64,000 nucleotides of DNA from Pseudomonadota bacterium (GTDB lineage Bacteria; Pseudomonadota; Gammaproteobacteria; Steroidobacterales; Steroidobacteraceae). Positions within the stretch are counted from its first letter, which is position 1. The number at the start of each line of letters is the position of its first letter. The notes beneath the pieces were generated by a model. That model had not been told where the DNA came from, made no database searches, and saw nothing but the letters and a program-made list of their open reading frames with translations. The DNA lies in the NCBI GenBank assembly GCA_018241525.1, contig JAFEDR010000001.1, forward strand, positions 124,001-188,000, in the 5' to 3' direction. A program made the position numbers and the translations under genes. Shown here piece after piece: positions 6,322 through 26,363 of the stretch.

Positions 6322-7923
6322 ATGAAGAAGACTCTCGGAGCGTACCTGATCGAGGACCTGGAGGCGCGCGGCGTCCGCCACGTCTTCGGTATCCCGGGCG
6401 TGCACAACCTCGAGTTCTACCGCGGCCTCGCCCGGTCCGGGATCCGTCACGTGGCCGGCCGCCACGAGCAGGGGCTCGGGTTCATGGCGGACGGTTACGC
6501 GCGCGTGAGTGGCTCACCCGCGGTCTGCTTCACCATCACCGGGCCCGGGCTCACGAACATCGTCACCGCCATGGGCCAGGCGTACGGCGACTCGATCCCG
6601 CTGGTGGTGATCGCGAGCGAGAACCGCCGCGGCGAACTCGGCACCGGGCGGGGCTTCCTGCACGAGATGCCCGACCAGCTCGGCGTCGCGGCGCGGGTCG
6701 CCGGGCTCAGCCGGCGGGTGACGGCGCCCGAGCAGCTGCCGGAGGCGCTCGACCTCGCCTTCGGCGGCGCGGTCGGGCTGCGGCCACGGCCGGCGTACAT
6801 CGAGATCCCGCGCGACGTGATCACGGAGGACGCGAGCGCGCTGCCGCCGCCAGGTCGCGGCCGGCCGCCGCACCGGGCGGCCGCCGAGTCGGGCGCCGTG
6901 GCCGCTGCCGCCCGGCGGCTGGCGGCCGCCCGGGCGCCGGTGATTCTCGCGGGCGGCGGCGCACTCGGTGCCGCCGCCGAGCTGCGCCGGGTCGCCGAGG
7001 CGCTCGATGCACCGGTGGTGATGACGGTGAACGGGCGTGGCCTGCTGCCGCCCGAGCATCCGCTCGGCGTCTCGCTGAGCCCGTCGCTCGAGCCGGTGCG
7101 CGCGCTGATCGCGGCCGCCGACACGGTGCTCGCGGTCGGCACCGAGTTCGGCCCGACCGACTACGATATGTACTCGGTCAGCGACTTCCCGCAGCCGCCG
7201 CACCTGATCCGCATCGACATCGACGCGGCGCACATGAAGCGCAGCGTGCGCGCGGACCTCGCGCTGCTCGGCGACTCGCGCGCGACGCTGGCGGCGCTGC
7301 TCGGCCAGGATCTCGGTGCGGGCCGGCCGCGGCGCGGCGCTGAACGGACCGGCGCGGCCGCGAGCGCCGCGCTTGCTGCCCTGTCCCCCGCCTACCGGCG
7401 CGAGATCGGCTTCCTCGAGACGATCCGCGCGGCGCTGCCCGGTGCGATCCTGGTCGGTGACTCGACCCAGGCGGTCTACGCGGGCAACCTCGGCTTCGCC
7501 GCCGCGACCCCCGGGTCTTGGTTCAACAGCGCGACTGGCTACGGCACCCTCGGCTATGCGCTGCCGGCATCCACCGGTGCCGGGCTCGCTGCGCCCGACC
7601 GCCCGGTCGTGTGCCTGACCGGCGACGGTGGCATCCAGTTCACGCTCGGCGAACTCGCCGTGCCGCGCGACGTCGACGCATGGACCGCGATCGTGGTCTG
7701 GAACAACCACGGCTACGGCGAGATCAAGAACTCGATGATCGCGGTCGGCATCGAGCCCGAGGGCGTCGACGTCCGCCCGCCGGACTTCGCCGCGCTGGCC
7801 GGGGCCTACGGCTACGGCCATCGCGTGATTGACTCGCTGCCGGCGCTGGCGGCGGCGCTCGCCGACTTCGGCGCCCGGCGCCAGGTCGTCGTCCTCGAGG
7901 TCCGCGCGGAGCGCTTCGAATGA
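6322..7923 (+). CDS. aruI: ThDP-dependent decarboxylase, 5-guanidino-2-oxopentanoate decarboxylase-like (AruI)
   Basis: A 533-residue acetolactate-synthase/benzoylformate-decarboxylase family protein. The N-terminal PYR domain carries the ThDP-activating Glu in RHEQG (E49). The C-terminal PP domain has LTGDGGIQFTLGEL...NNHGYGEIKNSM, the GDG-NN cofactor motif. In the arginine transaminase pathway AruI decarboxylates 2-ketoarginine to 4-guanidinobutyraldehyde. The specific call comes from the next gene, which overlaps by 4 nt (ATGA) and closely resembles AruH. Length matches the family. With DDAH across the divergent promoter, the pair may handle arginine or a methylated or otherwise modified arginine-type keto acid. 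Other 2-oxoacid decarboxylases of the family are the alternative. Confidence 0.78.
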   Translation: MKKTLGAYLIEDLEARGVRHVFGIPGVHNLEFYRGLARSGIRHVAGRHEQGLGFMADGYARVSGSPAVCFTITGPGLTNIVTAMGQAYGDSIPLVVIASENRRGELGTGRGFLHEMPDQLGVAARVAGLSRRVTAPEQLPEALDLAFGGAVGLRPRPAYIEIPRDVITEDASALPPPGRGRPPHRAAAESGAVAAAARRLAAARAPVILAGGGALGAAAELRRVAEALDAPVVMTVNGRGLLPPEHPLGVSLSPSLEPVRALIAAADTVLAVGTEFGPTDYDMYSVSDFPQPPHLIRIDIDAAHMKRSVRADLALLGDSRATLAALLGQDLGAGRPRRGAERTGAAASAALAALSPAYRREIGFLETIRAALPGAILVGDSTQAVYAGNLGFAAATPGSWFNSATGYGTLGYALPASTGAGLAAPDRPVVCLTGDGGIQFTLGELAVPRDVDAWTAIVVWNNHGYGEIKNSMIAVGIEPEGVDVRPPDFAALAGAYGYGHRVIDSLPALAAALADFGARRQVVVLEVRAERFE

Positions 7924-9104
7924 AACCGCGATTCGCTGAATTCGCCGGGCGCATCGCCCACGACGCCGGCGGCGACCCCTGGGCGCTGCACTGGGAGGCC
8001 CGCAACGCCAAGGCGCGCGGCGAGGACGTGATCGTGCTGTCGGTCGGCGATCCGGACCTCGACACGCCGCCGGCGGTCGTCGACGCCGCCGTCGCCGCGA
8101 TGCGCGGCGGTGACACGCACTACACCGAGAGCGCCGGCCGGCCGGCGCTGCGGGCGGCGGTGGCGGCGCTGCACACCCGGCGCACCGGGCAGGCGGCCGG
8201 CGCCGAGAACGCGATCGTGCTCGGCGGCTGCCAGAATGGCCTGTTCGTGAGCTCGATGCTGCTCGCCGGCCCCGGCGACGAGGTGATCGCGCTCGACCCG
8301 ATGTATGCGACCTATCCGGCGACGATCCGCGCCAGCGGCGCGACGCTGGTGCCGGTGGCGGCGCCGGCCGCCAACGGCTTCCACCCGGACCTGGCCGCGC
8401 TCGAGGCAGCCGTCACGCCGCGCACGCGCGCGATCTTCCTCGCCACGCCGAACAACCCGACCGGCGTTGTGTTTACCGAGGCTGACGTGGACGGCATCGC
8501 GGCGCTCGCGCGCCGCCACGACCTGTGGGTGGTCTCGGACGAGGTCTACGCCGGCATTGCCGACGGTGGGCGCGTGCCGTCGCTGGCGGCGAGGCTGCCC
8601 GAAAAGGTGCTGACGCTCGGCAGCCTGTCGAAGACGCACGCGATGACCGGCTGGCGCGCCGGCTGGATCGTCGGCCCGGCGGACTTCATCGCCCACGCCG
8701 AGCAGCTGGCGCTCAACATGCTGTACGGCCTGCCCGGTTTCGTGCAGCAGGCGGCGCAGACCGCGCTCGACATCGCCGACGAGGCCGAGACCGTGGTGCG
8801 GGCCTACTGCACGGCGCGGCGCGAGCGTCTCTACCGGGCGCTCGAGGGCCTGCCCGGCGTGCGGGCGATCTGGCCTGACGCTGGCATGTTCATGCTGCTC
8901 GACGTGCGCGCGACCGGGCTCACGGCCGGCGACTTCGTCCGCGGGCTGTACCAGGCCGAGCGCGTCTCGCTGCTCGACGGCGCTGCCTTCGGCCGCGCCA
9001 CCGAAGGCTTCGTGCGCGCCTGCTACGCCGCGGAAGAGCCGATGCTCGACGATGCGGCGCGGCGCATCCGGCGCTACTGCGAGCGCCTGGCGCCGGCCCG
9101 CTGA
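7920..9104 (+). CDS. aruH: Class-I aminotransferase, arginine:pyruvate transaminase-like (AruH)
   Basis: A 394-residue fold-type-I PLP aminotransferase. VLSVGDPDLDTPP near the N-terminus, the ATPNNPTG motif, VVSDEVYAG (cofactor Asp and Tyr) and SLSKTHAMTGWRAGW (PLP Lys) are all present. Long stretches resemble P. aeruginosa AruH, which transfers the alpha-amino group of arginine to pyruvate. ATG at 7920 overlaps the aruI-like stop, so translational coupling is likely. The stop lies in the left arm of a strong hairpin (9091-9124). General aspartate/aromatic aminotransferases share the motifs, so the arginine assignment depends on overall similarity and the AruI partner. Confidence 0.8.
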   Translation: MKPRFAEFAGRIAHDAGGDPWALHWEARNAKARGEDVIVLSVGDPDLDTPPAVVDAAVAAMRGGDTHYTESAGRPALRAAVAALHTRRTGQAAGAENAIVLGGCQNGLFVSSMLLAGPGDEVIALDPMYATYPATIRASGATLVPVAAPAANGFHPDLAALEAAVTPRTRAIFLATPNNPTGVVFTEADVDGIAALARRHDLWVVSDEVYAGIADGGRVPSLAARLPEKVLTLGSLSKTHAMTGWRAGWIVGPADFIAHAEQLALNMLYGLPGFVQQAAQTALDIADEAETVVRAYCTARRERLYRALEGLPGVRAIWPDAGMFMLLDVRATGLTAGDFVRGLYQAERVSLLDGAAFGRATEGFVRACYAAEEPMLDDAARRIRRYCERLAPAR

Positions 9105-17391: not shown

Positions 17392-18717
17392 TCAGGCCCG
17401 GACCTTCTCGGCGGCGCGGGTCTTGAGCGTCGCGTCGACCGCGACCTCGAAGCCCCGCAGCGTGTCGGCGAGGCACGAGTCGTCGTGGGCCGCGGAGATG
17501 AACCACGGCTCGCGCGAATCGGGCTCGCACAGCACCCCCTCGTCGTGCAGCACCTGTGCCATCGCGTCGTAGAACGCGTAGTCGCTGCCCTTCCAGTCGC
17601 GGTAGTTGCGCGGCGGCTTGGCATCGAAGTACAGCCCCGGCATCGACGGGTGGCCGACGAAGCTGTGAGCGATGCCGCGCGCATTCAGTACCTGGGTCAT
17701 GCCCTTCATCAGCCGCCGGCCGAAGTCGGCGACCCGGTCGAGCGCATCCGTCTCGTCGAGGATCTGCAGGCACTTCTCCGCCGCCGCAAGCGACACGGAG
17801 TGGGCCGTGTAGGTGCCGCCGTGGGCGACGCCCCGGCCGAGCTTGCGCATCACGTCCTCGCGGCCGGCCAGCACCGAGATCGGGTAGCCGTTCGCGACCG
17901 CCTTGGCGAAGGTCGTCAGGTCGGGGCGCACGGCGTGCAGTGACTGGACGCCGCCGCGGGCAACGCGGAAGCCGGTCTTGACCTCGTCGATCAGCAGCAG
18001 CGTGCCGTACTTGTCGCACAGCATGCGCGCCGCGCGCAGGTACTCCGGCTCCATGCCGATGCCGAGACAATTGCCCATGATCGGCTCGATCAGCATGCAG
18101 GCGATCCGGCCGGCGGTGCGCTTGAACGTGTCCTCGAGCTGGTTGGCGTCGTTCGCCTGCACGAAGTGCGCGAAGCCACGCACGCCGAGCGGCACGCCCT
18201 GGCTGTAGGGCACGACCTCGGGCTCGCCCTGCTGCGACCACTTTTCCATGGGCGTGTACCACATCGCCGCGTCGAACAGCCCGTGGTAGCTGCCCTCGAG
18301 GATGATGTAGTCGTCACGACCCGTGTAGGCGCGCGCCAGCCTGAGCCCGGCCATGACCGCCTCGGTGCCGGAGTTCGAGAACCGCACCAGCTCGGCCGCC
18401 GGCACCATCTTCGCGATCCGCTCCGCGACCCGGAACTCGCGCTCGGTCGACAGGGCGAACACCCCGCCGACCTGCATGCCCTCGCGCGCCGCGGCGTCCA
18501 CCTCCGGGTGGGCGTAGCCGAGGATCGCCGGACCGTAGCCCAGCCGGTAGTCGACGTAGCGGTTGTCGTCGAGGTCGGTGATCCGGGCGCCGCGGCCTTC
18601 CTTGACGTAGATCGTCCGGCCCTCGCCCCAGAAGCGGAAGTTCGACGCGACGCCAAGCGGCAGCCGGGTGTTGGCCTTGTGCCAGTGTGCATTGCTCTTC
18701 GAAAGATCCCGCGGCAT
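17392..18717 (-). CDS. Class-III aminotransferase, glutamate-1-semialdehyde aminomutase-like
   Basis: A 441-residue PLP enzyme of the class-III (omega-transaminase/HemL) group. It has FSNSGTEAVMAGLRLARA, EGSYHG, LLLIDEVKTGFR with the cofactor Asp, and the PLP lysine in TTFAKAVANGYP. It is not HemL itself judging by its catabolic context and by the N-terminus and C-terminal domain. First gene of a leftward five-gene operon (aminotransferase, two FAD enzymes, GcvT-like, PotA-like). It probably removes or adds an amino group on a demethylated product, converting an omega-amine or beta-amino acid to the semialdehyde or keto acid. The start ATG at 18717 is the only good in-frame choice. Confidence 0.82.
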   Translation of the reverse strand: MPRDLSKSNAHWHKANTRLPLGVASNFRFWGEGRTIYVKEGRGARITDLDDNRYVDYRLGYGPAILGYAHPEVDAAAREGMQVGGVFALSTEREFRVAERIAKMVPAAELVRFSNSGTEAVMAGLRLARAYTGRDDYIILEGSYHGLFDAAMWYTPMEKWSQQGEPEVVPYSQGVPLGVRGFAHFVQANDANQLEDTFKRTAGRIACMLIEPIMGNCLGIGMEPEYLRAARMLCDKYGTLLLIDEVKTGFRVARGGVQSLHAVRPDLTTFAKAVANGYPISVLAGREDVMRKLGRGVAHGGTYTAHSVSLAAAEKCLQILDETDALDRVADFGRRLMKGMTQVLNARGIAHSFVGHPSMPGLYFDAKPPRNYRDWKGSDYAFYDAMAQVLHDEGVLCEPDSREPWFISAAHDDSCLADTLRGFEVAVDATLKTRAAEKVRA

Positions 18718-18785: not shown

Positions 18786-18809
18786 AAATTTATATGCTCA
18801 TATAATTTT
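18786..18809. promoter_or_regulatory. Inverted repeat, candidate operator upstream of aminotransferase operon
   Basis: Arms AAATTTATATG and CATATAATTTT around CT; the core TTATATG-CT-CATATAA (18790-18805) is perfect and one flanking pair mismatches. It starts 69 bp upstream of the aminotransferase start. Placement and symmetry suggest a dimeric regulator site. The TetR-Rieske fusion at 22.9-24.5 kb is a candidate binder by context only. Confidence 0.55.
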
Positions 18810-18885: not shown

Positions 18886-19015
18886 CTGATAAATAATAAG
18901 ATAATGAAATTGACAGCGCCCCCCTTTCTGGGCATTCAACGGCTTGCCGCCGCCGCCTGTTCCGGGTTAGATTGAATGTCGATATAGCATCCGCAGATCC
19001 CCGAGGAGAACCCCC

Positions 19016-20182
19016 ATGGCAAGCGTTCCGGCCTTCGACACTGCCAGGGCTCCCGTCGTACCCAGCCGCCGTGCGCTGCCGGCGTGGGTCTACAACAATG
19101 CCGAGATGCACCGGCTCGAGATCGACCGCATCCTGCGGCCGAGCTGGCAGATTGGCTGTCACGTGAGCCAGGTGCCTCGCACCGGGGACTTCGTCACCTT
19201 CGACCTCGGCCCCGACAGCATCGTCGTGCTGCGCGACCGCGACGGCCAGATCCGGGCCTTCCACAACGTCTGTCGGCACCGCGGCGCCCGGCTGCTGGAC
19301 GGCAGCGGGCATTGCGCCGGCACGGTGGTCTGTCCCTACCACGGCTGGACCTACGGCTACGACGGACGGCTGATCGGCGTGCCGGCGAAGGAGAGCTTCC
19401 CCGGGCTCGACCGCGCGGGCCATGGCCTCAAGCCGGTCCGCTGCGAGGTGCTGCTCGGCTTTGTGTTCGTCTGCCTGACGGGCGAGCCGGCGCCGGTGCG
19501 CGAGCAGTGGGCGCCGTTCCTCGACGAGCTGGCACCGTACCGCTTCGAGGACATGGTGCCGCTGACGCCGGTCTCCTACGAGGAGTGGGACGTCGACTGG
19601 AAGGTCGCGATGGACAACTACCTCGAGTCGTACCACGTGCCGGTCGGCCATCCGGGCCTCAACCGCATGTTCACGCCGGACTACGACGACCAGAAGGGCA
19701 GCCGCGGCATCGCGCGTGGCACGAGCTGGCTGCGCGAGCAGCCCTCGCCGCGCTGGAGCGAGCGACACTACCAGGCGCTCGTCGGCGCGACGGCGACACA
19801 TCTGCCGGCGGAATACCGTCGCTGCTGGCGGTTCTACAGCGTGCTGCCGAACCTCGGCGTCGACGTGTACCCTGAGCTGATGGACTTCTTCCAGGTGTTG
19901 CCGCGCGCACCGGGCAAGTGCGTGATCCGCTATGCGATCTTCGGCCTGCCCGACGAGCGGCGCGAGATGCGCGTGCTGCGCGGGCTCAGCAACCGGATCA
20001 ATGACTCGGTCAACGAGGAGGACCGCCAGCTGTGCCTGCGGGTGCAGCGCGGGCTCGCCTCGCCGAGCTACACGCCCGGCCCGCTGTCGAACATCGAGAC
20101 CTGGATGACCGAGTTCCACGAGCTGCTCGAGCGGCAGATCCCGGAAATCCGCCTGCCGGCGCCGCCCAGCCGCTTCGTCTGA
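19016..20182 (+). CDS. Rieske non-heme iron oxygenase, large subunit (quaternary-amine type), copy 1
   Basis: A 388-residue terminal oxygenase. The Rieske [2Fe-2S] site is C86-x-H88 and C106-x2-H109 (CRHRG and CPYHGW). The mononuclear iron site lies in WKVAMDNYLESYHVPVGH with H207 and H212 and bridging D200. This arrangement matches enzymes that N-demethylate glycine betaine (GbcA), stachydrine or carnitine. ATG at 19016 follows GAGGAG. A second Rieske gene begins 22 bp downstream. A ferredoxin-type reductase, normally required, is not seen anywhere in the window. The product could be dimethylglycine plus formaldehyde if betaine is the substrate (inference). The C-terminal VQRGLASPSY segment recurs in the degenerate fusion protein nearby. 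Confidence 0.88.
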   Translation: MASVPAFDTARAPVVPSRRALPAWVYNNAEMHRLEIDRILRPSWQIGCHVSQVPRTGDFVTFDLGPDSIVVLRDRDGQIRAFHNVCRHRGARLLDGSGHCAGTVVCPYHGWTYGYDGRLIGVPAKESFPGLDRAGHGLKPVRCEVLLGFVFVCLTGEPAPVREQWAPFLDELAPYRFEDMVPLTPVSYEEWDVDWKVAMDNYLESYHVPVGHPGLNRMFTPDYDDQKGSRGIARGTSWLREQPSPRWSERHYQALVGATATHLPAEYRRCWRFYSVLPNLGVDVYPELMDFFQVLPRAPGKCVIRYAIFGLPDERREMRVLRGLSNRINDSVNEEDRQLCLRVQRGLASPSYTPGPLSNIETWMTEFHELLERQIPEIRLPAPPSRFV

Positions 20183-20204: not shown

Positions 20205-21377
20205 ATGAGCGCCGAGCCGACCGACGATCCGATCACCACCGGCTTCAACGGCCTCAAGCAGCTCGAGCGCACGCTGCCGACGCGCTGGTACCTCGATCCG
20301 GCGCAGTACGCCCTCGAGCTCGAGCGCATCTGGTACCGCGAGTGGGTGTACCTGTGCCGGGCCGCGACCCTGCCCGAGGTCCGCAGCTACCGGACGTTCA
20401 CCGTCGGTACCCAGCCCATCGTGGTGCTGCGCGACGAGCACGGCGAGCTGCGTGCCTACTTCAACACCTGCCGGCACCGCGGCGCCGCGCTGTGCCCCGA
20501 GCCCGAGGGCCGGCTGCCGGGCAACGCGATCACCTGTCCGTACCACGCCTGGAGCTACCGGCTGTCGGGCGAGCTCGCGCGGGTACCGTCGCAGGGCCGG
20601 CGCCACTACCTGCCGGACGGGGAGATCTCGCTCTACGCGGTCCCGGTCCATGTCTGGCGGGGCTTCGTGTACGTGAACCTCGGTGACCCGAGCCGCGCCT
20701 TCTCCGACAACTTCAACGCCAACACCGAGCAATTCCGCCACTGGCCGGTCGAGGACCTCGAGCCCGGCCACCGCCTGACGACGCGGCTGCGCTGCAACTG
20801 GAAGGTGTTCTGGGAGAACTACAACGAGTGCCTGCACTGCCCGGGCGTGCACAAGAACCTGTCGAGCCTCGTGCCGATCTACCGGCGCGGCATCATGGAG
20901 CCCCGCGACGACCCGTCGTGGGCCGCGCACGCGGGCGAGCAGGACCCCACCTACGCCGGCGGGCTGCGCGCCGGCGCGGCGACCTGGTCGGTCGATGGCC
21001 GCTCGCTCGGCCACGAATTCCCGGCGCTGACCCCCGAGGAGCGGCGCCTCGGCTATCACTTCATGACCAGCTTGCCGTCGCACTACATGGTCTTCCACGT
21101 CGACCACGTGCGCTCGACGCGTCTGCTGCCGCTCGGCCCCGAAGAGACCGAGCTCAGCGTCGAGTGGCTGTTCCCGCGCGCGACGCTCGCGGACCCGGCC
21201 ATCGACGTCCGGCGTGCCTGCGACTTCTCGGCGGAAGTGCTCGCCGAGGACGGCGCGGTCTGCGAGCTCGCGCAGCGCGGCATGCAGTCCGCGCCGCACG
21301 AGCAGGGCTACCTGATGCCCGAGGAGTACGACGTGTTCCGCTTCCAGCAGTGGGTGCGCGCCGCGCTCGAGCGCTGA
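20205..21377 (+). CDS. Rieske non-heme iron oxygenase, large subunit, copy 2
   Basis: A 390-residue paralogue with intact Rieske ligands C89-x-H91 and C111-x2-H114 (CPYHAW). The iron site NWKVFWENYNECLHCPGVH has H211 and H216, and the E-N-Y-N-E-C-L-H-C-P-G-V-H pattern is close to GbcA-type glycine-betaine oxygenases. It follows copy 1 by 22 bp and is surely co-transcribed. The two proteins differ in many positions around the iron site, so sequential demethylations or two different amines are more likely than redundancy. The stop codon lies in a hairpin shared with the converging aldehyde dehydrogenase gene. Confidence 0.88.
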   Translation: MSAEPTDDPITTGFNGLKQLERTLPTRWYLDPAQYALELERIWYREWVYLCRAATLPEVRSYRTFTVGTQPIVVLRDEHGELRAYFNTCRHRGAALCPEPEGRLPGNAITCPYHAWSYRLSGELARVPSQGRRHYLPDGEISLYAVPVHVWRGFVYVNLGDPSRAFSDNFNANTEQFRHWPVEDLEPGHRLTTRLRCNWKVFWENYNECLHCPGVHKNLSSLVPIYRRGIMEPRDDPSWAAHAGEQDPTYAGGLRAGAATWSVDGRSLGHEFPALTPEERRLGYHFMTSLPSHYMVFHVDHVRSTRLLPLGPEETELSVEWLFPRATLADPAIDVRRACDFSAEVLAEDGAVCELAQRGMQSAPHEQGYLMPEEYDVFRFQQWVRAALER

Positions 21378-21392
21378 GCGGCCCCGCTCAGC
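21373..21392. terminator. Short hairpin containing both convergent stop codons
   Basis: GCTGAGCGG-CC-CCGCTCAGC: 9-bp complementary arms. The rightward TGA (21375-21377) and leftward stop (21388-21390 on the plus strand) lie symmetrically in the arms. No U-tract. Possible overlapping transcription end. Confidence 0.4.
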
Positions 21393-22884
21393 CGAGGTGG
21401 ATCCAAGCGGACTTCGTCTGCGTGTAGGACAGCAGGCTCTCGAGGCACTTGTCGCGCCCGAAGCCGGACTGCTTGTAGCCGCCGAACGGCTGCGTCATGT
21501 CGCCGTGGTCGAAGCAGTTCACCCAGATGACGCCCGCCTCGAGGTCGCGGATCGCGGTGTGCGCGGTCCTCAGGTCGCGCGTCCAAATCGAGGCGGCGAG
21601 CCCGTAGATCGAGTCGTTCGCGACCCGCACGGCCTCCTCGAGGCCGTTGACCGTGATCGCCGCGGCCACCGGCCCGAAGATCTCCTCGCGGGCGATCGTC
21701 ATGCGGTTGTGCACCCCGGAGAACAGTGTCGGGTTCACGTAGCTGCCGGGCAGCGACGGGGTGTCGCCGCCGAACTCGACGCGCGCGCCGTCCTGCCGGC
21801 CGCGTTCGATGTACGAGACCACGCGCGCGCGATGGCCAGCGGTGACCAGCGGTCCGAGGTTCGTGGCCGGGTCGAGCGGGTCGCCGGCGCGGTAGGCGTT
21901 GCGGCCGAGCTCGACGAAGCGCGCCACGAAGGCTTCGGCGATCGGCTTGTCGATCAGCAGGCGCGAGCCGGCATTGCAGACCTCGCCCATGTTGCCGTAG
22001 ATGCCGTTGATCGCGTAGTTCACGGCGCGATCAAGGTCCTCGAGATCGGCGAGGAAGATCTGCGGCGACTTGCCGCCGCACTCGAGGCTGACGCGCTTCA
22101 TGTTCGACTGGCCGGCGTAGACCAGCATCTGCTTGCCGATCTCGGTCGAGCCGGTGAAGGCGATCTTGTTGACGTCGCCGTGCAGCGCGAGCGGGGCCCC
22201 GGCGGCCTCGCCGTGTCCGTTCACGACGTTGAACACGCCGGCGGGACCGCCGGCCTCGACGAACAGCTCGGCCATCAGCAGCGCCGAGAGCGGCGACTGC
22301 TCGGCCGGCTTCAGCACCACGGAGTTGCCGGCCGCCAGCGCCGGCGCCACCTTCCACGCCGCCATCAGCAGCGGGTAGTTCCAGGGCACGATGCAGCCAA
22401 CGACGCCGAGCGGCTCACGCAGGATGTAGTGGAACGCATCGCTCGCGGTCGCGGTCACCGCGCCGTCGATCTTGTCGCTCAGCTCAGCGAAGTACGTGAA
22501 GGTCTGCACCGCGGACGGCACGTCGATCGCCAGCATGTCGCGGATCGGCTTGCCCATCGTCAGCGTATCGAGCAGCGCGAACCGCTCCGCGTTCGACTCG
22601 ATCAGGCGCGCGTAGCGGCCTAGTACGGCGAGCCGGTCGCGCGGCGCCATGCGCCGCCACGCACCACTCGCAAAGGCGCGGCGCCCGGAGGCGACGGCGC
22701 GGTCGATGTCGGCGGCGCCGCCGGCCGACACCTCGCACAGCGGCGCGAGCGTCGCCGGGTTCGTGACCGTGAAGCGCTCCGGCGAGCGGCCGCCGACGTG
22801 CTCGCCGTCGATGAAGTGCCCGGTCGCGTACTTGAGCGTGCGGGCGCGGTCGTGCCAGTCGCGGGTCGAAAGTTCGGCATTCAT
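21388..22884 (-). CDS. Aldehyde dehydrogenase, betaine-aldehyde-dehydrogenase-like
   Basis: A 498-residue NAD(P)-dependent ALDH: N169 in VPWNYP, E268 in SLECGGKSP, catalytic C303 in GEVCNAGSR, and GFGRDKCLESLLSYTQTKS near the C-terminus. The family oxidises betaine aldehyde, gamma-aminobutyraldehydes and related amino aldehydes to acids. ATG at 22884 overlaps the stop of the TetR-Rieske fusion gene (ATGA), so the regulator and the enzyme are translationally coupled, much like betI-betB organisation. Possible substrates are betaine aldehyde, trimethylaminobutyraldehyde, or 4-guanidinobutyraldehyde from the AruI reaction. Normal length, no oddities. Confidence 0.85.
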   Translation of the reverse strand: MNAELSTRDWHDRARTLKYATGHFIDGEHVGGRSPERFTVTNPATLAPLCEVSAGGAADIDRAVASGRRAFASGAWRRMAPRDRLAVLGRYARLIESNAERFALLDTLTMGKPIRDMLAIDVPSAVQTFTYFAELSDKIDGAVTATASDAFHYILREPLGVVGCIVPWNYPLLMAAWKVAPALAAGNSVVLKPAEQSPLSALLMAELFVEAGGPAGVFNVVNGHGEAAGAPLALHGDVNKIAFTGSTEIGKQMLVYAGQSNMKRVSLECGGKSPQIFLADLEDLDRAVNYAINGIYGNMGEVCNAGSRLLIDKPIAEAFVARFVELGRNAYRAGDPLDPATNLGPLVTAGHRARVVSYIERGRQDGARVEFGGDTPSLPGSYVNPTLFSGVHNRMTIAREEIFGPVAAAITVNGLEEAVRVANDSIYGLAASIWTRDLRTAHTAIRDLEAGVIWVNCFDHGDMTQPFGGYKQSGFGRDKCLESLLSYTQTKSAWIHLG

Positions 22885-24497
22885 CGCGGATCTCCAGGTT
22901 CGGGTTGGGCGCCGGGCAGCAGCCGGGCGATGGCCTGGCGGAATGCGGCCAGTGCGGGCGGTGCGGCGGCGACCGGTTCGGCGGCGTAACCCGGGGATTC
23001 TAGGCCACGCTGCACGGACTCCGCGAGCGCGATCTCGGCGAGCAGTCGCTGCCGCTCGAGGCGCCGCGCCAGGTACGCCCGCGCCCGTTCCGCGCGGGTC
23101 GCGCTCGCGGCGGGATACTGGAAGACCCGCAGCCGCGCGCCGCGCGCATCGGCCGGCAGTACCTGCAGAACCGTCAGGCCGCCGCTGCCGGCCTCGGCGA
23201 GCTGGTTCGGTCCGAGGAACGCGGCGGGCGGCGTGTCGCGCGCGGCGGCCGTGAGTGCCGCCAGCCGGCGCGCGCTCCAGCCCGCCGGGGCGACGCCAGC
23301 GCGTGGCTCGAGCCACAGCTCGACGAGCACCTTCCAGTTGGCGCGTACCGGGAACTCGGTGAGGGTCGCGGGCCCTGCCGTCAACGCCGAGGCGCCGAGC
23401 GCTGCCACCGGCGCCGGCGGCCGGGCGACCTCCGGTCCGGAGGCCGGCGGACCGACGAACACGCAACCCTCGACGCTCGCGACCGACAGCGCGCGCAGCG
23501 CGCCGCCCGGCGTGTCGCCGAGCGGCTCACCATCGAGACCGTAGCGCAGACCGTGCAGTGGGCAGCCGATCTCGCCGGCGAGCCGGCCGGCGCGCCCGTC
23601 CAGCAGCGCGTGCGGCCGCTGCGGGCAGGCGTTGCGGAACGCCCGCAGCCGGCCCGAAGCATCGCGCACCACGAGCGCGAGGCCAGCCGGTGAGTCGAGC
23701 GCGAGCCAGGTGCCGGCTGCGGGCAGCTCGCGTTCGAGGCCGGCGAACTGCCAGGCGTCCCGCAGCAGCGAGGCGCGCTCGGCCGCGAGCAGCGCCGCGC
23801 TCGTATAGGCGCTCGCCGGCAGGGTCGCGATCGCGGCTGGCGCGGCTGCACCGAAGGCGCCGGGAAACACCGAGCGCAGGTAGGCGAGCGCGCGCCGCCG
23901 CGCGCTGTCGCGGTCGATCGTCGATTCAGTCTGGAACGCGAAGCCCTGCCAGAGCATCTCGAGCACGCCGATCAGGCCGAGCGCGATCGCGTCGGCGTCG
24001 AGGTGGCGTGCGCCGCTCGTGGCGACCAGGCTCGCGATCAGCTCGCGGACCAGATCCTCGAACTTGCTGTCGCGCGAGCCGCAGATGTCGTGGTACTCCT
24101 GCCGCGCACTCGCCTCGCCCCAGAACGCGTACCAGACCGAGACCTTGCGGGTGCTGGCGAGCTCGACGCCGAGGTAGAGGTCGACGAGGTGCTCCAGGGC
24201 GGCGACCGGCCGGTCGCGCAGCGCCGCCACCGGCACCAGCAGGCGCTCCTCGAATTCCGCGGCCAGGAACTCGAGCGAGGCGACCAGCATCGCGTCCTTC
24301 GAGTCGAAGTAGAAGCGCACGATCCCGGGTGACATGCGCGCGATCGCGACCACCTTCTCGACGGTGGTCTTCGACGGCCCGTGCACGTGCAGGGCCGAGA
24401 TGCAGGCATCGATCAGCCGCTGCCGCTGGCGCTCGCGCGTCGCGCGCGGGCGTGCCGGCGGCGGGGCAGGGCGGGACCGGCGCGGCGAGCGGCTCAT
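22881..24497 (-). CDS. BetI-like TetR regulator fused to a degenerate Rieske-oxygenase-like domain
   Basis: A single 538-codon frame. Residues about 20-212 form a TetR/BetI regulator: helix-turn-helix TTVEKVVAIARMSPGIVRFYFDSKDAM and the BetI-type ligand domain with VWYAFW. After a linker (213-228), residues 229-525 align with Rieske oxygenase alpha subunits. Rieske-like segments are C291-P-Q293, where the His ligand is Gln, and C312-P-L-H315. The catalytic segment NWKVLVELWLEP has Ala at both iron-His positions (A400, A405), and AESVQRGLESPGY matches the real oxygenases nearby. It therefore cannot be a normal oxygenase. I infer a regulator with a pseudo-oxygenase sensory half. It is coupled to the aldehyde dehydrogenase and divergent from permeases. 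The neighbouring Rieske genes make a fusion after duplication plausible. Confidence 0.88.
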   Translation of the reverse strand: MSRSPRRSRPAPPPARPRATRERQRQRLIDACISALHVHGPSKTTVEKVVAIARMSPGIVRFYFDSKDAMLVASLEFLAAEFEERLLVPVAALRDRPVAALEHLVDLYLGVELASTRKVSVWYAFWGEASARQEYHDICGSRDSKFEDLVRELIASLVATSGARHLDADAIALGLIGVLEMLWQGFAFQTESTIDRDSARRRALAYLRSVFPGAFGAAAPAAIATLPASAYTSAALLAAERASLLRDAWQFAGLERELPAAGTWLALDSPAGLALVVRDASGRLRAFRNACPQRPHALLDGRAGRLAGEIGCPLHGLRYGLDGEPLGDTPGGALRALSVASVEGCVFVGPPASGPEVARPPAPVAALGASALTAGPATLTEFPVRANWKVLVELWLEPRAGVAPAGWSARRLAALTAAARDTPPAAFLGPNQLAEAGSGGLTVLQVLPADARGARLRVFQYPAASATRAERARAYLARRLERQRLLAEIALAESVQRGLESPGYAAEPVAAAPPALAAFRQAIARLLPGAQPEPGDPR

Positions 24498-24586: not shown

Positions 24587-25531
24587 ATGAAGACGGGAGC
24601 GAACCCAGCGGCCGCGGGCGACAGCCCGCGCCGCGGCCTGGCCGCCTGGGTCGACCGGTACGGTCGCTGGCTGATCATCCTGCCGCCGCTCCTGTTCCTG
24701 CTGGTGTTCTTCCTGATCCCGTTCGGCTACGCGCTCAAGATCAGCTTCGCCGAGGCCGCGCTCAGGATACCGCCGTTCAGCGACGTCGCGACGCTGACCC
24801 CCGACCACCGCCTGCACCTGACCCTGAGCCTCGCGAACTACAAATACCTGTTCACCGACGAAGTGTATGCGGTTTCCTACCTGTACTCGATCAAGACCGC
24901 CTTCTTTTCGACCCTGTTGTGCCTGCTGATCGGCTACCCGATGGCCTACGCGATGGCGCGCTCGTCGAAGGCGACGCAGAGCATCCTGATGCTCGTGATC
25001 ATCCTGCCGTTCTGGACCTCGTTCCTGCTGCGGGTCTACGCGCTCGAGGGAATCATCCGCGACCAGGGCCTGCTGAATACCGTGCTGCTCTGGTTGGGCG
25101 TGATCCACGAGCCGCTCAAGATCATGCGCACGACCGCCGCCGTGTACCTCGGCATCGTCTATTCGTACCTGCCGTTCATGGTGCTGCCGCTGTACGCGAC
25201 GCTCGAGAAGCTCGACCTGACGCTGCTGGAGGCCGCTTCGGACCTCGGCAGCCGCCCCTGGCAGGCATTCCTCGACGTGACGTTGCCGCTGTCGATGCCC
25301 GGCATCATCGCCGGCTCGATGCTGGTGTTCATTCCGGCGATTGGCGAGTACGTGATTCCGGCGCTGCTCGGCGGACCGGACAACCTGATGATCGGCCGCG
25401 TGCTGTGGGACGAGTTCTTCGCCAACCACGACTGGCCGGTGGCGGCGGCGGTCGCGATCGCGTTCCTGGTGCTGCTGGCGGGGCCGATCGCCGTGCACCA
25501 GCACTACCGCGTGCGGCAGCTCGAGGGCTGA
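24587..25531 (+). CDS. potB: ABC transporter permease, PotB type
   Basis: A 314-residue inner-membrane permease. About six transmembrane segments begin with WLIILPPLLFLLVFFLIPFG. The EAA-type cytoplasmic loop is LEAASDLGSRPWQAFLDVTLPLSMPG. It is typical of spermidine/putrescine PotB/PotH proteins. ATG at 24587 has a weak ribosome site (GGGGCACG). It is divergent from the TetR-Rieske fusion across 89 bp and followed after one base by PotC. No substrate-binding protein or ATPase adjoins; the PotA-type ATPase at 11764-12909 is the only matching one here. Substrate inferred to be a polyamine or quaternary amine. Confidence 0.85.
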   Translation: MKTGANPAAAGDSPRRGLAAWVDRYGRWLIILPPLLFLLVFFLIPFGYALKISFAEAALRIPPFSDVATLTPDHRLHLTLSLANYKYLFTDEVYAVSYLYSIKTAFFSTLLCLLIGYPMAYAMARSSKATQSILMLVIILPFWTSFLLRVYALEGIIRDQGLLNTVLLWLGVIHEPLKIMRTTAAVYLGIVYSYLPFMVLPLYATLEKLDLTLLEAASDLGSRPWQAFLDVTLPLSMPGIIAGSMLVFIPAIGEYVIPALLGGPDNLMIGRVLWDEFFANHDWPVAAAVAIAFLVLLAGPIAVHQHYRVRQLEG

Positions 25532-25532
25532 C

Positions 25533-26363
25533 GTGGAGCGCCGCGCCTCGCCGTTCCTGATCACGGTGCTGTGCCTCGGCATCGCCTTCCTGTACCTGCC
25601 GATGGTGGTGCTGATCGGCTACTCGTTCAACGCCTCGGCGCTGTCGAGCGTCTGGGGCGGCTTCTCGACGCAGTGGTACGTCGAGCTCGTCCACAACCGC
25701 CAGATCCTGAACGCGGCGGCGCTGTCGCTCGAGGTCGCGGCGCTCGCCTCGACCGGGGCACTGGTGCTCGGCACGCTCGCCGCCGTCGCGCTGGTGCGCT
25801 TCCCGGTGTTTCGCGGGCGGCTGCTGCTCAGCGGCATGGTCAATGCGCCGCTGGTGATGCCGGAGATCATCACCGGCATCACGCAGCTGCTGCTGTTCGT
25901 GTCGATGCTGCAGCTGATCGGCTGGCCGGCGCGCGGCATGACGACGATCATCCTCTCGCACGTCGCATTCTGCTCGGCGTACGTGACGGTGACGGTGCAG
26001 TCGCGGCTCGCGTCCGCCGATCGCTCGCTCGAGGAGGCGGCGATGGACCTCGGCGCGACGCCGTTCCAGGCGTTCGTCGACGTGACCCTGCCGATCATCG
26101 CGCCGGCGCTCGTCTCGAGCTGGCTGCTGAGCTTCACGCTCTCGCTCGACGACCTCGTGATCTCGAGCTTCGTCTCGGGACCGCGCTCGAGCACGCTGCC
26201 GATGGTGATCTACTCGAAGGTCAAGCTCGGCGTGAGCCCCGACATCAACGCGCTCGCGAGCCTGATCATCACGCTGGTGGGCGCCTGCGTGCTGCTGGCC
26301 GGCTACCTCGTGCGTCGCGCCGAGCGCCAGCGGCTCGCCGAGGCGCGCCTCGCCGCCAGCTGA
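25533..26363 (+). CDS. potC: ABC transporter permease, PotC type
   Basis: A 276-residue permease with six predicted membrane segments and the EAA loop LEEAAMDLGATPFQAFVDVTLPIIAP; SLDDLVISSFVSGP is characteristic of PotC/PotI. The GTG start at 25533 is one base after the PotB-like stop, and the coding sequence shows no other plausible start. It pairs with PotB to form the transmembrane channel. It converges on the HD-domain gene with a 3-bp gap. Confidence 0.85.
   Translation: MERRASPFLITVLCLGIAFLYLPMVVLIGYSFNASALSSVWGGFSTQWYVELVHNRQILNAAALSLEVAALASTGALVLGTLAAVALVRFPVFRGRLLLSGMVNAPLVMPEIITGITQLLLFVSMLQLIGWPARGMTTIILSHVAFCSAYVTVTVQSRLASADRSLEEAAMDLGATPFQAFVDVTLPIIAPALVSSWLLSFTLSLDDLVISSFVSGPRSSTLPMVIYSKVKLGVSPDINALASLIITLVGACVLLAGYLVRRAERQRLAEARLAAS

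What the first reader, a model, noticed from the sequence alone, without database searches (positions are those of the whole stretch)
22881..24497. TetR/BetI regulator fused to a catalytically dead Rieske oxygenase
One uninterrupted frame encodes a BetI-like DNA-binding and ligand domain plus a nearly full-length Rieske-oxygenase-like half. The Rieske first motif is C-P-Q instead of C-x-H (Q293), while C312-x2-H315 remains. Both iron histidines are Ala (A400, A405), but E393, NWKV and the distal VQRGL-SP-Y segment are kept. Seen directly in sequence. A regulator using a pseudo-oxygenase as sensor for the oxygenase substrate, or for oxygen or redox state, is inference. It is translationally coupled to the aldehyde dehydrogenase and lies beside two intact Rieske oxygenases, which suggests birth by duplication and fusion. 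I know of no described family with this architecture, but could not search.
Basis: partly seen in the sequence, partly recalled or inferred. Interest (0 to 1): 0.93.

Follow-up and report, generated by a model that had tools for sequence, protein, structure and literature searches.

The report
Gene switch built from dead oxygenase
One bacterial gene joins a BetI-type DNA-binding regulator to a Rieske oxygenase that has lost its catalytic iron ligands; the layout is conserved in many relatives, a related group keeps all the catalytic motifs, and the protein is therefore likely a gene switch that would sense methylated amines through a retired enzyme.

Summary
It is no read-through: the 118 relatives examined (47-87% identical in the listing) share the TetR/BetI + Rieske-oxygenase layout. 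Two facts change the picture. (1) A second group of fusions keeps the full catalytic motifs (115 of 117 database proteins; also Inquilinus limosus), and the densest tree places the dead halves with them (support 84), not with the neighbouring oxygenase. (2) The dead half is under selection. Among 150 non-redundant dead fusions C291, H296 and C312 are in 150 and H315 in 149, while the normal Rieske ligand H293 survives in 17 and none has His at both aligned iron positions; the half is otherwise only 34% identical. A perfect palindrome, TTATATGCTCATATAA (18790-18805), lies between the aminotransferase and oxygenase genes; 44 of 47 such regions have its core within two mismatches. Best reading: a one-component repressor of methylated-amine catabolism that reads its inducer with a pseudo-oxygenase. 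What it senses, what it binds, and whether it holds a [2Fe-2S] cluster are untested.

The parts
22881..24497 (-). BetI-type TetR regulator fused to a pseudo Rieske oxygenase, 538 aa
24279..24416 (-). TetR_N DNA-binding domain, residues 28-73; residues 56-64 (SPGIVRFYF) invariant in 119 of 119
23865..24209 (-). TetR_C_6 (BetI-type) domain, residues 97-211
   Evidence: fold match to a choline-bound TetR (4kwa)
23523..23753 (-). Rieske-fold domain, residues 249-325
23553..23627 (-). altered Rieske motif C291-x4-H296 ... C312-x2-H315 with Q293 in place of the ligand His
23283..23321 (-). vestigial iron site, residues 393-405: E393, W395 (CntA Y203 position), E397 (CntA E205 position), A400 and A405 in place of the iron histidines
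   Evidence: PMC7948474 (passages)
22917..23219 (-). Ring_hydroxyl_A catalytic-domain remainder, residues 427-527
22881..22884 (-). ATGA overlap of regulator stop and aldehyde dehydrogenase start
21388..22884 (-). aldehyde dehydrogenase, 498 aa
18790..18805 (.). perfect palindrome TTATATGCTCATATAA, predicted operator
18972..18987 (.). possible second, weak copy of the palindrome (4 mismatches)
17392..18717 (-). class III aminotransferase (GntE-like), predicted target
19016..20182 (+). intact Rieske oxygenase RHO1, predicted target and enzyme partner
20205..21377 (+). intact Rieske oxygenase RHO2
24587..25531 (+). PotH-like polyamine ABC permease, divergent from the fusion
25533..26363 (+). PotI-like polyamine ABC permease

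Best explanation
This is a BetI-type (TetR-family) regulator fused in one frame to a Rieske oxygenase that has lost the iron-binding histidines; it likely represses the divergent aminotransferase/oxygenase promoter through the palindrome TTATATGNNCATATAA and would release it when a methylated or quaternary amine binds in the retired oxygenase. Shown: the fusion, its conservation, the loss of the Rieske ligand His and both iron His, and the retention of C291, H296, C312, H315, an aromatic residue at the CntA cation-pi position (W395) and the bridging carboxylate (E397). Shown: a group of fusions with intact motifs, and a conserved palindrome between the aminotransferase and oxygenase genes. Inferred: that the dead half descends from an active BetI-oxygenase fusion, and that the separate oxygenase RHO1 now does the chemistry. 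Inferred: that the regulator binds that palindrome, that the signal is an N-methylated amine of the catabolic cluster, and that the C/H/C/H site still holds a metal (perhaps a [2Fe-2S] cluster with H296 replacing H293) as a structural or redox element.
Against: No binding, ligand or cofactor was measured. The oxygenase half is missing in at least five dead-clade loci with >=1.6 kb of following sequence (L067, L068, L070, L073, L075), all of which keep the palindrome, so the half is dispensable in places. Two relatives, G075 and G148 (96% and 84% complete), carry the palindrome at an OYE/MttB promoter but have no close TetR half (best 33-35%), so another regulator can own that site. The BetI half is more conserved than the oxygenase half and could be the sensor. 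Four of 40 dead loci (L032, L043, L047, L082) lack the RHO1 partner, and L032, L038, L047 and L082 carry an H-x4-H pair two residues upstream of the lost iron positions, so 'dead' is not proven for that subclade. E/D397 is gone in 19 of 150. pTM is 0.62, so the placement of the halves is uncertain.
Confidence: 0.5

Rival explanations
1. The BetI half senses the ligand; the oxygenase half only sets oligomer state or docks to the active oxygenase RHO1.
For: TetR half far more conserved (mean top-residue frequency 0.81 against 0.51); oxygenase half missing in five checked loci with the palindrome kept; BetI-type pocket fold.
Against: Does not explain why C291, H296, C312, H315 and W395 are kept while the catalytic ligands vanish.
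Confidence: 0.25
2. The oxygenase half is an Fe-S redox, oxygen or iron sensor: a Rieske-like [2Fe-2S] cluster held by C291, C312, H315 and H296 changes state and alters DNA binding.
For: Four invariant or nearly invariant candidate ligands, while the normal ligand position 293 is something other than His in 133 of 150 (Q 47, E 34, R 29, V 9, A 6, K 3, N 2, M 1, S 1, I 1).
Against: H296 is also present in intact fusions (11 of 12 loci; 107 of 116 proteins) and in CntA, where a normal ligand exists, so it may keep an older structural role. No coordinates were available to test the geometry.
Confidence: 0.15
3. The oxygenase half is a decaying passenger without function.
For: Fast evolution, shortened iron loop, loss of the half in some loci.
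Against: Continuous frames in dozens of loci, full predicted fold, invariant residues.
Confidence: 0.07

Closest known systems
Intact-motif BetI-Rieske oxygenase fusions (Inquilinus limosus, Labrys wisconsinensis, Kiloniellales MAG)
   Same: Same domain order and, in most, the +5 His; Inquilinus clusters also hold PotHI, PotG and the aminotransferase
   Different: Keep CxH...CxxH and D/E-x2-H-x4-H; different recognition helix; no RHO1-type partner found nearby. No published description found in the searches named
CntA / stachydrine demethylase / GbcA-type quaternary ammonium Rieske oxygenases
   Same: Best sequence and fold matches of the oxygenase half
   Different: No DNA-binding domain; catalytic ligands present
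BetI, choline-responsive TetR repressor
   Same: TetR_C_6 domain, BetI profile 69.5 bits
   Different: Far below the BetI equivalog cut-off of 201.3; 300-residue extra half
MocR/GabR regulators such as EnuR
   Same: Works alike: DNA reader fused to an enzyme fold reused as inducer sensor (abstract of PMC8739950)
   Different: GntR reader with a PLP aminotransferase fold; unrelated domains
PutA (recalled, not read)
   Same: Enzyme and repressor in one chain, as the intact fusions would be
   Different: Ribbon-helix-helix and flavoenzyme domains

Membership tests
TetR family, BetI type | TetR_N helix-turn-helix and TetR_C_6 above Pfam gathering score | tested here: met
   25.2 vs 24 and 44.4 vs 27 bits
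BetI (TIGR03384 equivalog) | score above the curated cut-off | tested here: not met
   69.5 vs 201.3 bits
Rieske oxygenase alpha subunit | Rieske and Ring_hydroxyl_A domains, full alpha-subunit fold | tested here: met
Rieske oxygenase alpha subunit | C-x-H ... C-x2-H cluster ligands | tested here: not met
   Q293; His there in only 17 of 150 dead fusions
Rieske oxygenase alpha subunit | two-His mononuclear iron site | tested here: not met
   A400 and A405; 0 of 150 have both aligned His, 1 (L062) has one; four loci have an H-x4-H pair two residues upstream
Rieske oxygenase alpha subunit | bridging carboxylate | tested here: met
   E397; E/D in 131 of 150
Glycine betaine monooxygenase GbcA (NF058607) | score above the curated cut-off | tested here: not met
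   49.1 vs 670 bits
Fe-S transcription regulators | bound iron-sulfur cluster | not testable with these tools
   needs spectroscopy
MocR/GabR | GntR reader plus aminotransferase-fold domain | tested here: not met
   Pfam shows TetR and Rieske domains only

The most novel reading that the evidence does not exclude
A TetR-family iron-sulfur regulator born from a self-regulating enzyme: a single-chain BetI-oxygenase lost catalysis, shifted one cluster ligand from H293 to H296, swapped Tyr for Trp in the cation-pi pocket and became the substrate and redox sensor for a new, separate oxygenase.
Probability: 0.25. Interest if true: 0.95.

Novelty: new variant of a known kind. Interest (0 to 1): 0.84.

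Why it matters
It offers an enzyme-to-sensor transition with living candidates for each stage: fusions with intact motifs, dead fusions with a separate enzyme beside them, and regulators without the oxygenase half. If the metal site is real it would add a TetR-family Fe-S regulator with an altered Rieske ligand set. The predicted operator and its two candidate target promoters make binding, inducer and cofactor directly testable.

Tried and rejected
Chance read-through or sequencing artefact: rejected by homologues. Birth by copying the neighbour RHO1: disfavoured, not excluded. Operator in the fusion/PotH intergenic region: none of 64 fusion-upstream regions has the palindrome core within 2 mismatches; 3 of 64 at 3 mismatches.

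One origin of all fusions: for the TetR half not rejected without L124 (p-AU 0.461). For the oxygenase half, dead + intact including L088 is rejected (p 0.0002), without L088 not (p 0.42). My test (dead + 'core' intact) was rejected (p 0.0009); it included four rows (P0233, P0234, P0235, P0239) that sit with L088 and the unfused S clade. So a second fusion event, or a fission, near L088 is possible.

Exclusive ownership of the palindrome by the fusion: not shown. A scan of 150 genomes of the family gave 70 with a core match of at most 1 mismatch; the backward control pattern also matched in some. Of the 30 loci fetched, 14 lie between aminotransferase and RHO1, 6 between an OYE-type reductase and an MttB-like methyltransferase, 10 at neither; of the 14 with a perfect core, 13 are at these two promoters and L173 is not.

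No plasmid record covered 80% of the dead or intact query. Not tried: the second structure job, viral and phage collections, the third protein search.

Dropped rows and samples: one of 120 listed proteins (332 aa) before alignment; profile and model alignment A1 holds 64 of the 120; 21 of 171 (119 database proteins plus 52 loci) for >=90% identity, leaving 106 and 44; three of 120 in the intact list under 560 aa. Trees used chosen subsets: 97 of 167 oxygenase rows, 45 of 99 TetR rows, 54 and 60.

Full report
What is there. The frame 24497->22881 (minus strand) encodes 538 aa without a stop. Pfam finds TetR_N, the BetI-type TetR_C_6, Rieske and Ring_hydroxyl_A, all above their gathering scores. 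Its stop overlaps the aldehyde dehydrogenase start as ATGA.

It is a family. A search of 5.8 billion proteins scored 7996 candidates, 1706 at E<=1e-3; the 120 best are listed, and the 119 of at least 450 aa that I aligned (the window's own protein and 118 relatives) cover both halves. In the named genome collection 80 loci were kept of 144 that encode a relative, and in a sample of 150 genomes of the window's family 117 match the profile, separate oxygenases included. Of the 118 loci then in hand 96 hold both halves in one open frame, duplicates and the window's own genome included. Names given by records include Steroidobacteraceae, Gammaproteobacteria and Acetobacteraceae MAGs.

An intact group. 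Distant fusions keep the whole active-site motif set, for example CRHRAHAV...CPYH with DNYLEDYHFPTGHPG in Inquilinus limosus; five genomes of the window's own family have such fusions too. A second protein search scored 7996 candidates, 450 at E<=1e-3, and listed 120 relatives of the Inquilinus protein; of the 117 of at least 560 aa, 116 have the Rieske motif, 116 the iron motif and 115 both. Labrys wisconsinensis and a Kiloniellales MAG are among the names. That they are active enzymes is not shown.

Where the dead half came from. All TetR halves of fusions in the tree, dead and intact, fall in one supported clade (97/92); its other six members are one unfused TetR (L124, which overlaps a separate oxygenase gene) and five dead-clade TetRs without a full oxygenase half. 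The dead oxygenase halves are one clade (100/100) on a long stem, and with denser sampling they group with the main intact fusions at SH-aLRT 84; grouping them with the neighbour oxygenases is rejected at p-AU 0.041, but not in the sparser set (0.0885). The histidine at +5 from the first Rieske cysteine agrees: 150 of 150 dead, 11 of 12 intact loci, 107 of 116 intact database proteins, 0 of 58 neighbour-type (best unfused oxygenase of each locus numbered below L080), 0 of 11 second-best and 3 of 32 other unfused oxygenases. Long branches and the L088 group keep the exact number of fusion events open.

What selection keeps. Over 861 pairs of 42 dead loci the median identity is 0.69 for the TetR half, 0.62 for the partner oxygenase and 0.34 for the dead half. 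Yet in 150 non-redundant dead fusions C291, H296 and C312 are in 150 and H315 in 149 (the exception is L051), while position 293 is Q 47, E 34, R 29, H 17, V 9, A 6, K 3, N 2, M 1, S 1, I 1. W388, A386, L334 and P448 are also in all 150. By alignment to CntA, our 397 is its bridging E205 and our 395 its Y203, which binds the quaternary ammonium group by a cation-pi contact (PMC7948474; I saw passages, not the whole text). Position 395 is W in 135 of 150 dead fusions, against Y in 11 of 12 intact loci and 54 of the 57 (of 58) partner oxygenases with a readable motif; 397 is E in 120 and D in 11. That pattern fits a pocket kept for binding without chemistry; this is inference. The +5 position corresponds, as I recall, to the disulfide cysteine of bc1-type Rieske proteins, beside the cluster; no coordinates were available to test ligation.

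The lost iron site, and an exception. Counting from W388, none of 150 has His at both iron positions and one (L062) has one of them. But L032, L038, L047 and L082, one TetR clade together with L043, carry an H-x4-H pair two residues upstream (EQLLLHRLPEH-like), without the bridging carboxylate at 397. Three of these (L032, L047, L082), with their relative L043, which has one of the two His, are also the four of 40 dead loci without a RHO1 neighbour (L038's contig is short). This subclade may keep or have rebuilt part of a metal site; I cannot tell.

Neighbourhood. Of 40 dead loci with at least 6 kb downstream, 36 have a RHO1-type oxygenase (at least 50% identical) within 8 kb and 36 the aminotransferase. 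Of 47 with at least 2 kb upstream, 45 have PotH divergent from the fusion; L019 and L051 do not. None of the 12 intact loci has a RHO1-type neighbour; one (L087) has another oxygenase, and flanks are short in L085, L122 and L123. So the intact fusion would be its cluster's enzyme and the dead one delegates to RHO1 (inference). The window's cluster also holds PotG, a GcvT/TMAO-demethylase-like protein, CrtI-like oxidoreductases and a TonB receptor, which suggests uptake and demethylation of an N-methylated amine.

Operator. Between the aminotransferase and RHO1 lies TTATATGCTCATATAA (18790-18805), the only site in the window within 3 mismatches and the only perfect one in the genome. Against TATATGNNCATATA, 47 such regions (46 loci and the window) have best sites with 0, 1, 2 and 3 mismatches in 19, 20, 5 and 3; of 940 block shuffles 8 reach 2 or fewer. 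In 40 of 47 a second site (up to 4 mismatches) is present, often about 31 bp away. Of 120 loci scanned (1.55 Mb), 47 have a hit within 2 mismatches of the 16-mer; in 45 the nearest window-type genes are the aminotransferase and RHO1; L076, L120 (an intact-fusion locus) and one extra site in L026 are elsewhere. The genome's other site is a tandem pair (2 mismatches each) between an OYE-type reductase and an MttB-like methyltransferase, and six relatives have it at the same promoter. Against sole ownership: two of these six, G075 and G148, have only 33-35% identical TetRs.

Loss of the half. L067, L068, L070, L073 and L075 sit inside the dead TetR clade, keep a TetR 67-73% identical to the window's, have at least 1.6 kb of following sequence without an oxygenase remnant, and keep the palindrome. 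L076, L077 and L081 also show none; L064 and L065 show only weak fragments (4 and 13 bits). L082 has the dead half in another frame; L069, L071, L072, L074 and L078 run off their contigs too soon to judge.

Verdict. A real, widespread architecture, undescribed in the sources searched. It works most like MocR/GabR regulators (enzyme fold reused as sensor) but belongs to none of them; it is a TetR regulator by domain tests and not a working Rieske oxygenase by ligand tests.

Noticed in passing
L005:1351-3540:+ (G000:C6 about 217.5-219.7 kb) and L033:992-3160:+: A second enzyme-fused regulator: one 730- or 723-aa open frame with TetR_N, BetI-type TetR_C_6 and a complete aldehyde dehydrogenase domain whose ELGGK and GEVC motifs are kept. 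Open frames of 705-708 aa with TetR hits occur in four more genomes (their other half was not checked).
   Followed up: partly
G000:C14:299947-299983: Tandem copies of the palindrome (2 mismatches each) between an OYE/FadH-type reductase and an MttB-like trimethylamine methyltransferase gene, a predicted second target promoter.
   Followed up: partly
L032, L038, L047, L082: A subclade of otherwise dead fusions with an H-x4-H pair two residues upstream of the usual iron positions; three of the four are also without a RHO1 neighbour, L038's contig being short.
   Followed up: partly
L124:8052-9949:-: Separate, overlapping TetR and intact oxygenase frames in the order of the fusion: an unfused antecedent or a fission product.
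   Followed up: partly
L070, L072, L073, L074, L075: Loci where the bare dead-clade TetR lies on the same strand as RHO1, next to it, instead of convergent to it.
   Followed up: no
L086: Record named Mycobacterium sp. KBS0706 carries a fusion 95% identical to that of Inquilinus limosus; the name is probably wrong.
   Followed up: no
window 6322-9104 +: A 5-guanidino-2-oxopentanoate decarboxylase (above its cut-off) followed by a GntC-like PLP enzyme (below its cut-off), with a GntE-like aminotransferase at 17392-18717 (below its cut-off): hints at an arginine-derived compound.
   Followed up: no
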